In this document: positions 28,651 through 31,718 of the stretch, in pieces
Numbering within the stretch: the first letter of the stretch is position 1
Layout of the letters: every line of letters starts with the position of its first letter
Source: an uncultured Alphaproteobacteria bacterium
Lineage (GTDB): Bacteria > Pseudomonadota > Alphaproteobacteria > RF32 > CAG-239
DNA length: 64,000 nucleotides
NCBI GenBank assembly: GCA_944390355.1
Contig: CALXPT010000002.1
Coordinates: forward strand, 1 to 64,000
Reading direction: 5' to 3'
Translations under genes and position numbers: made by a program
Notes under the pieces: generated by a model
The model's input: only the letters and a program-made list of their open reading frames with translations
Told to the model about the DNA's origin: nothing
Databases searched by the model: none

Positions 28651-28727
28651 GCGGCTTAATTCTTTCCGCTTGATTTTTGCAGGTAAAAAAGTATTTTAAA
28701 TATGTATCAATTTTAGGGGAGGGATAT

Positions 28728-29345
28728 ATGCTGAAAATTATTTTATCTATCGTTGTTTTGGGTGCAATTATTGGGGCAGGTGTCGGCGGCGTACATCTTT
28801 ATAAAGTCGCACAACGCAATGCCGAAGAAATGGCTCCGTTTGAAGGAAAAGACGTTGTCGCTCGTCGGCTTCCGGGGCGGACGCTGATTGTTTATTATTC
28901 TCTGAGCGGACATACCAAAGATATTGCCGAGCGGATTCAAAAAATGACCGGCGGTGAGCTTTATGAAGTAAAAACCGCTGAGAAGATAAAACAAACACCT
29001 TGGTTCTATCTGACACTCAGAAAGCAACTTAAAGATAAAAATTATCCCAAGTTGAGTGGCTCTTTGCCTGATTTTCGCCAATATGACACGATTTTTGTCG
29101 GCGGGCCGGTTTGGTGGTATACCGCATCAACTCCGATGCGGGCTTTTTTGCAACAAGCCGATTTTAAGGGTAAAAAAGTTGTTCCGTTTACAACGCAAGG
29201 CAGTAATGTCGGAACTTATTTTGAAGATTTTGCGCAAATGGCTAAAAATGCCAAACTCCTCAAAAGCGCGTCTTTTAACAATATGCCCGAAAAGTACGAC
29301 CATGCGGTTGATAACAAAATCGCAACTTGGATTAATTCTTTATAA
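28728..29345 (+). CDS. Membrane-anchored flavodoxin, copy 1
   Basis: A GGGGAGGG site five bases upstream fixes the ATG at 28728 and gives 205 residues. One N-terminal membrane helix (residues ~3-20) is followed by a flavodoxin fold: the phosphate-binding loop YYSLSGHTKDIAE, then FVGGPVWWYTASTPM around the isoalloxazine ring, and a late FTTQGSNVG loop. It should bind FMN and act as a one-electron carrier or NAD(P)H oxidoreductase facing the cytoplasm. The next gene is a close paralogue, so the pair arose by tandem duplication. Confidence 0.85.
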   Translation: MLKIILSIVVLGAIIGAGVGGVHLYKVAQRNAEEMAPFEGKDVVARRLPGRTLIVYYSLSGHTKDIAERIQKMTGGELYEVKTAEKIKQTPWFYLTLRKQLKDKNYPKLSGSLPDFRQYDTIFVGGPVWWYTASTPMRAFLQQADFKGKKVVPFTTQGSNVGTYFEDFAQMAKNAKLLKSASFNNMPEKYDHAVDNKIATWINSL

Positions 29346-29363
29346 TAAATGATTGCTAATCAA

Positions 29364-29404
29364 AGACCTGTTCTCTAATAACAAGGAGAACGGGTCTTTT
29401 TTTT
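29364..29404 (+). terminator. Terminator of flavodoxin copy 1
   Basis: AGACCTGTTCTC pairs with GAGAACGGGTCT, followed by a run of eight T. Confidence 0.8.
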
Positions 29405-29517
29405 ACAAAGTCGAGTCGGGACAGAATTTTTTTTGCACAGAGCCAAAATTTTTTTCTTTTGCATAAGGAAGGTAAAGATTTATGATAAGCAAAAGAAAAG
29501 CTTAAAAGGAGAAAACA

Positions 29518-30135
29518 ATGTTAAAATTTTTGGGATACTTTGTCGTAACCGTTGCCGTTTTAGGCTTCGGATTTGCATACTATCACAATCATAAAGTTTC
29601 AAAAATGAACGAAATTGAAATGTCTCGGTACGACACGCCCGAAAAATATAAAAATCATCTAAAAGGCAAAACATTGGTCATATATTATTCTTTAAGTAAG
29701 CATACCCAAAAAATAGCCGAGAAGATACAAGAGTTAACGGGGGCAGATATCTATGAGATTGAAACCGAAGAACCGATAAAACACAATCTAATGGCTTATT
29801 GGAAGATTCGCCAACAGCTAAAAAAGAAAAACTATCCAAAGTTAAAAGAGAAAGCACCGGATTTGAGTAAATATACAACGATTATAATCGGCGGACCTGT
29901 GTGGTGGTATACGGTAGCAACCCCGATGATTTCATTTTTGAATGAGGCCGATTTTAAAGGCAAAAAAGTTGCGGTATTTTCAACACAAAGCAGTAATTAT
30001 GGGCGTTATTTTGAAGATTTTAAAAGCTTTGCAAAGCATGCGGATATAAAAACGACAATATCGTTTAATAACACGCCAGAAAAATATTCACAAGCAGAGG
30101 AAAATAAATTAATAAACTGGTTGAATAAAATCTAA
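29518..30135 (+). CDS. Membrane-anchored flavodoxin, copy 2
   Basis: The start follows AAAGGAG six bases upstream. At 205 residues it is the same length as the preceding gene and has the same layout: N-terminal membrane helix (~3-20), YYSLSKHTQKIAEKI loop, IIGGPVWWYTVATPM, and FSTQSSNYGRYFEDF. The phosphate loop differs (SLSK for SLSG). The two copies are diverged enough to be old duplicates. Each has its own terminator, so they may be separately regulated. Partner proteins are not evident. Confidence 0.85.
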   Translation: MLKFLGYFVVTVAVLGFGFAYYHNHKVSKMNEIEMSRYDTPEKYKNHLKGKTLVIYYSLSKHTQKIAEKIQELTGADIYEIETEEPIKHNLMAYWKIRQQLKKKNYPKLKEKAPDLSKYTTIIIGGPVWWYTVATPMISFLNEADFKGKKVAVFSTQSSNYGRYFEDFKSFAKHADIKTTISFNNTPEKYSQAEENKLINWLNKI

Positions 30136-30144
30136 AATAGTTAA

Positions 30145-30177
30145 TAAAAAAAGCTTCTGGATGCAGAAGCTTTTTAT
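30145..30177. terminator. Bidirectional terminator between flavodoxin and SemiSWEET fusion
   Basis: AAAAAAAGCTTCTG pairs with CAGAAGCTTTTTAT. It sits between convergent genes and would serve both strands. Confidence 0.75.
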
Positions 30178-30192
30178 CAACAAACAGAAGCT

Positions 30193-31164
30193 TTAACTCT
30201 TTTTCTTCGCTGCCTTAGACTTAACTTTAGCAACAGGAATAGAATGCTTGTTATCTTTATGAGTATTTTTTGCAACATTCTTTTGTTTAAAATCTGATTT
30301 AGAAACAACAGATTTAGCACGATAACTCCTCTGTTTTTTTTCATCAGCAACAGCCATGTCAGTACTATAAAAACCAATAGAATGTCTAGTTTGTGTCGTA
30401 GACAAAGCCAGTCGAGCTTTCTTAGTTAAATCATCCAAATCACTACCACAATCAGAAGAACAAACCCCAACAAGCAACTCAACGTTAGTCTTTTCTTTCT
30501 CAGACTTTTTTATTTCAATAGCGTGAACAGCTTCCCAAACGCGAGACACGACATTTTTTGCAAAGTCTTTATTTAAACTTGCAATATAGATGGCAAATTC
30601 ATTATCATCGATTCTCGCCACAAAATCATTACCACGCAAAGCATTTTCAAGAGCTTTAGCCGTACGTTTCAAAGTCCTGTTTTTATATTTGCCCCCCATG
30701 CTGTTATAAATAGTATCCAAATTTGCAATTTTGGCAGTTAAAATACAAAAAGGAACATTACGAGCACGAGACTCAGCCAAAACATCAGGAAGATAAGTAT
30801 TATAATAATCCCGATTGAAAACCCAAGTCAAAGGATCGCGTCTAAACCGTTCAATTTTATCTTCTTCATCATAATAGATAATCTGAAGCAAAATAGTAAA
30901 AGTAAAGAAAAACGTAATAAGGTTAGAAATAGCTAAAACCCAAGAGTCAATATAAACACCGTAAGCAAACCAACAAATCAAAGCCAAACTATACATAGTA
31001 TACATATAGCTGGAAAGCCCTGAAATATTTTTAGTGGTTAAAATTCTCAGACTTTGAATAACAAAAGCGGCAATAGTACCGATAGCAGCGGCATAGCCGA
31101 TATATTCAAACAAGGTACCATCGGCAAACAAGATATCCATAAATTTAGATAAAGATTCGAACAT
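30193..31164 (-). CDS. SemiSWEET-like (PQ-loop) membrane domain fused to degenerate GGDEF domain
   Basis: GAGGAA seven bases upstream supports the ATG at 31164, giving 323 residues; an extension to 31248 is not supported. Residues ~20-98 form three membrane helices of the SemiSWEET half-transporter type (KNISGLSSYMYTMYSL; CWFAYGVYID; ISNLITFFFTFTILLQ). Residues ~108-270 look like a GGDEF domain: DPLTWVFNRDYY at 110 matches the usual DPLTGLYNR entry, but the catalytic signature is RIDDNEF (184-190) instead of RxGGDEF, so cyclase activity is doubtful. The last ~45 residues are Lys-rich. A sugar or metabolite-sensing, c-di-GMP-related or purely regulatory role is inference. It ends in a bidirectional hairpin. 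Confidence 0.75.
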   Translation of the reverse strand: MFESLSKFMDILFADGTLFEYIGYAAAIGTIAAFVIQSLRILTTKNISGLSSYMYTMYSLALICWFAYGVYIDSWVLAISNLITFFFTFTILLQIIYYDEEDKIERFRRDPLTWVFNRDYYNTYLPDVLAESRARNVPFCILTAKIANLDTIYNSMGGKYKNRTLKRTAKALENALRGNDFVARIDDNEFAIYIASLNKDFAKNVVSRVWEAVHAIEIKKSEKEKTNVELLVGVCSSDCGSDLDDLTKKARLALSTTQTRHSIGFYSTDMAVADEKKQRSYRAKSVVSKSDFKQKNVAKNTHKDNKHSIPVAKVKSKAAKKKS

Positions 31165-31224
31165 TGCACTATTCCTCATAAAAAATAACATATATAAAAT
31201 ATACCTCAAAAGGTTAATATTTTG

Positions 31225-31263
31225 CAAAAAAATAAGACTCTCAAACAAGAATCTTATTTTTTT
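31225..31263 (-). terminator. Terminator of the glycine-zipper lipoprotein gene
   Basis: AAAAAAATAAGA and TCTTATTTTTTT flank a loop. It lies between the lipoprotein stop codon and the SemiSWEET fusion gene, separating the two minus-strand units. Confidence 0.65.
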
Positions 31264-31265
31264 AA

Positions 31266-31718
31266 TTAATTATAGGGAATAACGCGAGCTTGTTTTCCAT
31301 AGATAACCAAACACCTTTGTCCCGGTTGCATATAAATATCGCTTCCTTGAGTAACTGTAACCAAACCTCCTTGATCAAGTTGAACGGTATACTCATAACC
31401 AACTTGAGAAGAAATACCTTGCTCGGTCAAATCACCGACGACACCGCCGACCAAAGCCCCTCCTAACGCGCCGAGAACACCTGCAGTAGAACCACGGCCG
31501 ATTTGCGACCCCGCTACACCACCGGCAATAGTGCCGAGAGTAGCACCTGTATTGTCATTATTTTGAACATTAACTTGACGAACACTAACAATTCTGCCCA
31601 TTTTTGTAACATTAACTTGGTTAGCACTGGTTGTTGCATAATCGTTAGCTCCGATTCTGGGCGCGCAGGCCGAAAGCAAAGAAAGCGCGGCAAAGCAAAT
31701 ATAAAAAGACTTAATCAT
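31266..31718 (-). CDS. Glycine-zipper 2TM lipoprotein (SlyB/Pcp-like)
   Basis: The ATG at 31718 has AAGGAG nine bases upstream; the TTG at 31724 is too close to it. The 150-residue protein has a lipobox (LLSAC), so it is acylated and sorted to the envelope. A glycine-zipper block (residues ~56-98, GATLGTIAGGVAGSQIGRG and GALGGALVGGVVGD) follows, then a small beta domain. This is the SlyB/Rickettsia 17-kDa antigen type, which supports outer-membrane integrity. Confidence 0.85.
   Translation of the reverse strand: MIKSFYICFAALSLLSACAPRIGANDYATTSANQVNVTKMGRIVSVRQVNVQNNDNTGATLGTIAGGVAGSQIGRGSTAGVLGALGGALVGGVVGDLTEQGISSQVGYEYTVQLDQGGLVTVTQGSDIYMQPGQRCLVIYGKQARVIPYN

What the first reader, a model, noticed from the sequence alone, without database searches (positions are those of the whole stretch)
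30193..31164. SemiSWEET half-transporter fused to a degenerate GGDEF domain
Three PQ-loop-type helices are followed directly by a domain with a GGDEF-type entry motif (DPLTWVFNR) but RIDDNEF in place of GGDEF, then a Lys-rich tail. A sugar-carrier fold acting as sensor for a (pseudo-)diguanylate cyclase would be an unusual signalling design. I am not aware of a described example.
Basis: partly seen in the sequence, partly recalled or inferred. Interest (0 to 1): 0.75.

Follow-up and report, generated by a model that had tools for sequence, protein, structure and literature searches.

The report
SemiSWEET-fold protein fused to pseudo-GGDEF receptor
In a family of gut Alphaproteobacteria, a three-helix sugar-carrier fold has been joined to a dead signalling enzyme domain that has lost its catalytic residues but kept its binding site for the second messenger c-di-GMP, so it probably works as a membrane sensor or receptor, not as a sugar pump or an enzyme.

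Summary
The ORF at 30193-31164(-) (323 aa) is a genuine SemiSWEET-fold + GGDEF fusion by Pfam, phmmer and Foldseek. It is no one-genome artefact: 27 of 152 genomes of the same family encode it, its GGDEF half has one origin, and I found no such fusion elsewhere. The GGDEF half is not a cyclase: essential catalytic residues are lost throughout the family. However, the c-di-GMP inhibitory-site triad (R177xxD180 + R208 = PleD R359xxD362 + R390) is 27/27 invariant, while 26 other degenerate GGDEF domains from the same and sister genomes keep it 0/26. The SemiSWEET half keeps the pocket Trp (27/27) and Asn (26/27), but its PQ-hinge proline is gone in 27/27; 36/40 unfused alphaproteobacterial SemiSWEETs keep it. 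Best reading: a membrane c-di-GMP receptor whose sugar-carrier fold became a sensor/dimerisation module, comparable to the KDEL receptor's loss of its TM1 PQ motif. The genome has one canonical cyclase, one HD-GYP phosphodiesterase and no PilZ hit, so this is a leading receptor candidate. Ligand binding, dimer state and output are inferred. New variant of a known kind (degenerate-GGDEF I-site receptors), in an architecture I found in no paper searched.

The parts
30193..31164 (-). SemiSWEET-pseudoGGDEF fusion gene, 323 aa, ATG at 31164, stop included
   Evidence: 27 homologues
31172..31177 (-). Shine-Dalgarno-like GAGGAA
   Evidence: sequence
31033..31116 (-). TM1 (residues 17-44)
   Evidence: AlphaFold model
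31054..31059 (-). I36-Q37, at the place of the SemiSWEET PQ motif; proline absent in 27/27 fusions
30952..31020 (-). TM2 (residues 49-71) with pocket Trp W65
30970..30972 (-). W65, conserved SemiSWEET pocket Trp (27/27)
30841..30942 (-). TM3 running as one helix into the GGDEF linker (residues 75-108; invariant Y97 Y98 D99, E101 D102, E105, R108)
30922..30924 (-). N81, conserved SemiSWEET pocket Asn (26/27)
30394..30840 (-). degenerate GGDEF domain (residues 109-257)
   Evidence: Pfam; VIA-align Z 24.7 to 4urs
30625..30636 (-). I-site RxxD (R177-G-N-D180); R and D invariant 27/27
30595..30615 (-). RIDDNEF (residues 184-190) in place of RxGGDEF
30541..30543 (-). R208, third I-site residue (PleD R390), invariant 27/27
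30196..30363 (-). variable Lys-rich C-terminal tail (residues 268-323)
   Evidence: low pLDDT towards the end
30146..30175 (.). bidirectional terminator-like hairpin between the convergent flavodoxin gene and the fusion
   Evidence: sequence

Best explanation
A membrane-bound c-di-GMP receptor. The SemiSWEET-fold half anchors and probably dimerises the protein, as SemiSWEETs do, and no longer runs a normal transport cycle because the hinge proline of TM1 is gone; it may still bind a sugar-like ligand through the kept Trp/Asn. TM3 continues as one helix into the cytoplasmic GGDEF domain. That domain cannot make c-di-GMP but binds it at the preserved inhibitory site. A ligand in the membrane half and c-di-GMP on the cytoplasmic half would then influence each other through the TM3 helix, and the output would be a protein-protein contact. 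Shown: domain make-up, family-wide loss of catalytic residues, invariant I-site triad, loss of the proline, continuous TM3 helix in the model. Inferred: c-di-GMP binding, dimerisation, membrane ligand, coupling, partner.
For: Catalytic positions in 27 fusions: D327 0/27, K332 1/27, N335 0/27, G369 0/27, K442 0/27; I-site R359, D362, R390 each 27/27 (I-site make-up from PMC7288161). The fusion clade is deep (branch lengths sum to about 11 changes per column, my addition), so invariance is not recency. Control: 26 other degenerate GGDEF domains from the same and sister genomes have the three residues 0/26, 0/26, 0/26 while keeping the neighbouring R366 26/26. Of 45 columns invariant in 16 family cyclases only 10 stay invariant in the fusions, including all 3 I-site and none of 10 catalytic columns (P about 0.001 if kept at random). 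Proline 0/27 in fusions versus 36/40 unfused SemiSWEETs of the class and present in all 5 unfused ones looked at in the family and in L120. All 27 fusion genomes also carry the canonical cyclase (P about 1e-4 without correction for relatedness). G000 has one canonical cyclase, one HD-GYP protein with intact motif, no PilZ hit and only EAL-like proteins without an EAL motif. Precedents: PopA, degenerate A-site with RxxD receptor (PMC12564702); KDEL receptor, PQ-loop fold lacking the TM1 PQ motif (PMC7561476).
Against: No binding data. The fourth I-site contact, the arginine from the partner domain (PleD R313 / DgcR R163), is not conserved, so PleD-type cross-linking is not predicted, although the family's active cyclases lack it too. 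An arginine at the R390 position is conserved in GGDEF domains in general (PMC7288161). One fusion (L008) has Met in place of the pocket Asn. The gene stands alone with no conserved neighbours, so no partner is suggested. Patchy distribution shows that it is dispensable. Other c-di-GMP receptor classes (MshEN, CRP-like and so on) were not searched for.
Confidence: 0.6

Rival explanations
1. c-di-GMP-gated sugar carrier: the SemiSWEET half still transports, and c-di-GMP bound at the pseudo-GGDEF opens or closes it.
For: Pocket Trp 27/27 and Asn 26/27, PQ glutamine 27/27, SemiSWEET fold at 1.0 A to 4qnc; I-site invariant.
Against: Hinge proline absent in 27/27; in AtSWEET1 replacing an intrafacial-gate TM1 proline (P23A/P23T) abolishes activity (PMC5742349), and the proline is described as enabling TM1 bending in SemiSWEETs (PMC7561476).
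Confidence: 0.15
2. Pseudo-enzyme partner of the family's single canonical cyclase: it forms heterodimers with it and tunes its activity or feedback inhibition; c-di-GMP bridges the I-sites.
For: Its GGDEF is the sister group of that cyclase's GGDEF (83/59, moderate) and all 27 fusion genomes have the cyclase.
Against: 85 family genomes have the cyclase without the fusion; no linkage of the genes; secondary I-site arginine not conserved.
Confidence: 0.15
3. Residual scaffold: the I-site residues are kept for folding, the domain binds no nucleotide, and the protein is a sugar-dependent or purely structural membrane scaffold.
For: Other degenerate GGDEF domains of these genomes lost everything yet persist, so such domains can live without c-di-GMP.
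Against: Precisely those controls show that R359/D362/R390 are not needed to keep a GGDEF-like domain (0/26 each).
Confidence: 0.07
4. Active but unorthodox diguanylate cyclase.
For: Some degenerate GGDEF motifs are active, e.g. AGDEF of VCA0965 (PMC3974145, abstract listed).
Against: Not just the motif: metal Asp, phosphate Lys, base Asn and the C-terminal Lys are missing across the family.
Confidence: 0.02

Closest known systems
PopA (Caulobacter crescentus)
   Same: GGDEF paralogue of an active cyclase with dead A-site and intact RxxD I-site, a c-di-GMP receptor (PMC12564702)
   Different: PopA is a soluble response regulator; here the partner domain is a SemiSWEET-fold membrane module
PelD (Pseudomonas aeruginosa)
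   Same: membrane protein whose degenerate cytoplasmic GGDEF binds c-di-GMP (PMC7288161)
   Different: PelD serves Pel polysaccharide export and (from general knowledge) its membrane part is not a SemiSWEET; here there is no conserved operon
SemiSWEET sugar transporters (4qnc, 4x5m, 4rng)
   Same: three-helix fold, pocket Trp/Asn, PQ glutamine
   Different: PQ proline lost in every fused copy; GGDEF domain appended to TM3
KDEL receptor
   Same: PQ-loop/SWEET fold used as a receptor after loss of the TM1 PQ motif (PMC7561476)
   Different: eukaryotic 7-TM trafficking receptor, no second-messenger domain
5TMR / S-component-fold receptors
   Same: transporter fold joined to cytoplasmic signalling domains, GGDEF among them (PMC11109136)
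   Different: a different membrane fold (ECF S-component); the GGDEFs are named there as c-di-GMP-producing

Membership tests
SemiSWEET transporter | three-TM MtN3_slv fold | tested here: met
   Pfam 7e-6 over cut-off; model vs 4qnc target-TM 0.93, rmsd 1.0
SemiSWEET transporter | PQ motif (hinge proline in TM1) | tested here: not met
   I/L in 27/27; P in 36/40 unfused alphaproteobacterial SemiSWEETs
SemiSWEET transporter | pocket Trp and Asn | tested here: met
   W65 27/27, N81 26/27
SemiSWEET transporter | homodimer that moves sugar | not testable with these tools
   only single-chain models can be made here
Diguanylate cyclase | GGDEF-fold domain | tested here: met
   Pfam 1.3e-19; Z 24.7, rmsd 1.5, 159 aligned to 4urs
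Diguanylate cyclase | catalytic GG(D/E)EF, metal Asp, GTP-binding K/N/D, K-R pair | tested here: not met
   D327 0/27, K332 1/27, N335 0/27, G369 0/27, K442 0/27
Degenerate-GGDEF I-site c-di-GMP receptor (PopA/PelD kind) | dead active site | tested here: met
   by residues
Degenerate-GGDEF I-site c-di-GMP receptor (PopA/PelD kind) | RxxD I-site plus R390-position arginine | tested here: met
   27/27 each; 0/26 in degenerate controls
Degenerate-GGDEF I-site c-di-GMP receptor (PopA/PelD kind) | binds c-di-GMP | not testable with these tools
   needs ITC/DRaCALA
PleD-type cross-linked inhibited dimer | secondary I-site arginine from the partner subunit (R313 PleD or R163 DgcR) | tested here: not met
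   no conserved Arg at either position; K/R within columns 33-36 in 9/27 (PMC8041772)
Transceptor (transporter fold acting as receptor) | transporter fold, no transport, ligand-dependent signalling | not testable with these tools
   only the loss of the hinge proline and the appended signalling-type domain are shown

The most novel reading that the evidence does not exclude
A SWEET-fold bacterial transceptor in which a sugar in the membrane pocket and c-di-GMP on the pseudo-GGDEF are allosterically coupled through TM3, so that one protein reads nutrient and second messenger together.
Probability: 0.35. Interest if true: 0.8.

Novelty: new variant of a known kind. Interest (0 to 1): 0.6.

Why it matters
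Transporter folds turned into receptors are reported as rare, and the one described as widespread in prokaryotes uses a different fold (PMC11109136). This family gives 27 natural copies of a minimal 3-TM sugar-carrier fold wired to a c-di-GMP-site domain, in genomes with a very small c-di-GMP circuit, and the three invariant residues and the missing proline make the idea directly testable. It also offers a candidate answer to how gut Alphaproteobacteria without PilZ proteins read c-di-GMP.

Tried and rejected
Active cyclase: rejected on residues. Assembly or frameshift artefact: rejected by 27 homologues. Operon context as a clue to the partner: no conserved neighbours in 27 loci. Independent SemiSWEET-GGDEF fusions elsewhere: none seen among roughly 90 SemiSWEET hits in 385 genomes of the class; the three longest other frames checked (L160-L162) show no GGDEF in the SemiSWEET frame. 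The genome-contig scan used junction and TM2 peptides, so a distant independent fusion would have been missed. EAL domains as the phosphodiesterase: both G000 EAL-like proteins score below or near cut-off and lack an EAL motif. In the whole-chain structure comparison GGDEF chains filled the list, so the membrane half was modelled and searched alone. Paper searches for SemiSWEET+GGDEF and PQ-loop+GGDEF gave none; only open-access text is held. The Lys-rich tail was dropped as a functional part because it is not conserved.

Full report
What is there. The minus-strand ORF 31164-30193 encodes 323 residues. Residues 21-101 match Pfam MtN3_slv at 7e-6 and 109-257 match GGDEF at 1.3e-19. NCBIfam SemiSWEET_2 reaches 1.7e-15, under its own curated cut-off; phmmer finds solved SemiSWEETs at 7e-11. 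AlphaFold with 27 sequences gives TM helices 17-44, 49-71 and 75-108, the third running unbroken into the GGDEF domain, most of which is modelled at pLDDT above 90. The membrane half modelled alone (pLDDT 91) matches SemiSWEET 4qnc at target-TM 0.93 and 1.0 A; the GGDEF half matches 4urs at Z 24.7, 1.5 A over 159 residues.

It is a conserved family. In 152 genomes of the same family, 27 carry a full-length fusion. A scan of the 84,980-species collection found 26 fusions, all in uncultured Alphaproteobacteria or proteobacterium MAGs, one named 'Azospirillum sp. CAG:239', several with gut or rumen sample names, plus one unfused relative. That this is the GTDB CAG-239 family, and that it is gut-associated as a whole, is my inference. 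The fused GGDEF domains form one clade (98/100), sister to the GGDEF of the family's canonical cyclase (83/59, moderate). The gene tree cuts across genera (G000 of g1 groups with G107 and G102 of g12), neighbours are not conserved, and in same-genus genome G002 the flavodoxin and lipoprotein genes that flank the fusion in the window lie about 87 bp apart with no fusion between them. So the gene is patchy: gained, lost or exchanged within the family.

The GGDEF half looks dead as an enzyme but keeps the c-di-GMP site. PMC7288161 gives the I-site as RxxD (R359, D362 of PleD), R390, and an arginine from the neighbouring domain. I mapped PleD numbers by motif spacing, with PleD's sequence recalled from memory; the stretch between the metal Asp and GGDEF is ungapped against the family's own canonical cyclase. 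In 27 fusions R359, D362 and R390 are invariant, whereas D327, N335, G369 and K442 are lost in all and K332 in 26. This is not the fate of degenerate GGDEF domains in these genomes: 26 others from the same and sister genomes have 0/26 for each I-site residue but 26/26 for the neighbouring R366. Of 45 columns invariant in 16 family cyclases, ten are invariant in the fusions: all three I-site columns and none of ten catalytic ones (P about 0.001 if drawn at random). The partner-subunit arginine is not conserved, so I do not claim a PleD-like cross-linked dimer.

The SemiSWEET half looks converted. The pocket Trp is 27/27, the pocket Asn 26/27 and the PQ glutamine 27/27, but the proline is Ile or Leu in all 27. 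Unfused SemiSWEETs of the same family and the close unfused relative L120 have PQ, as do 36 of 40 unfused ones sampled from the class. The proline is described as the hinge of the transport cycle, and mutation of an intrafacial-gate TM1 proline of AtSWEET1 (P23) abolishes activity (PMC5742349; PMC7561476). In the KDEL receptor, a PQ-loop-fold protein turned receptor, the TM1 PQ motif is likewise absent.

Cellular setting. G000 has one canonical membrane-PAS-GGDEF cyclase, one protein with an HD-GYP domain whose HD and HHExxDGxGYP residues are present, two further degenerate GGDEF proteins, two EAL-like proteins without an EAL motif, and no PilZ hit. All 27 fusion genomes have the cyclase, a correlation not corrected for relatedness. 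A c-di-GMP receptor is therefore expected, and the fusion is the best candidate seen, though other receptor classes were not searched.

Mechanism. I favour a membrane c-di-GMP receptor with a non-transporting SemiSWEET-fold sensor or dimerisation module, signalling through TM3. Shown by sequence or model: architecture, lost catalytic residues, intact I-site triad, lost proline, continuous helix. Inferred: binding, dimer, membrane ligand, coupling and partner. Rivals are a c-di-GMP-gated carrier and a pseudo-enzyme partner of the cyclase (about equal), then a ligandless scaffold, then an unorthodox cyclase.

Novelty. No paper in the held library mentions SemiSWEET or PQ-loop together with GGDEF, a limited test. 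Dead-GGDEF I-site receptors are known (PopA, PelD), and transporter-fold receptors with GGDEF domains are known for the ECF S-component fold (PMC11109136). The combination here is new as far as I could check, hence 'new variant of a known kind'.

Noticed in passing
G000:C8:45344-47234 (L093:841-2121, L092:715-2046): Two adjacent paralogous proteins with EAL-like C-terminal halves but no EAL motif; possible pseudo-EAL receptors in the same genome.
   Followed up: partly
L078:1556-2734, L079:1804-2856 and homologues among L121-L157: Further conserved families of proteins with degenerate GGDEF domains that lost both active site and I-site, in nearly every genome of the genus; what they do is unexplained.
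   Followed up: partly
L163:564-2273 (G000:C6): HD-GYP protein with a long insertion between the HD and HHExxDGxGYP parts; the only intact-looking c-di-GMP phosphodiesterase found in this genome.
   Followed up: partly
window 28677-30135: Two tandem flavodoxin-like genes with N-terminal hydrophobic segments next to the fusion; a flavodoxin-like gene also lies near the unfused SemiSWEET in L120 (4622-5194) and near the fusion in L094.
   Followed up: partly
L167 (G002:C42) versus window 30135-31266: Flavodoxin-lipoprotein-asnS order is kept without the fusion: an empty site for the gene.
   Followed up: yes
L182, L208, L212, L063: A divergent group of unfused SemiSWEET-like proteins in other Alphaproteobacteria with FQ or LQ in place of PQ.
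   Followed up: no
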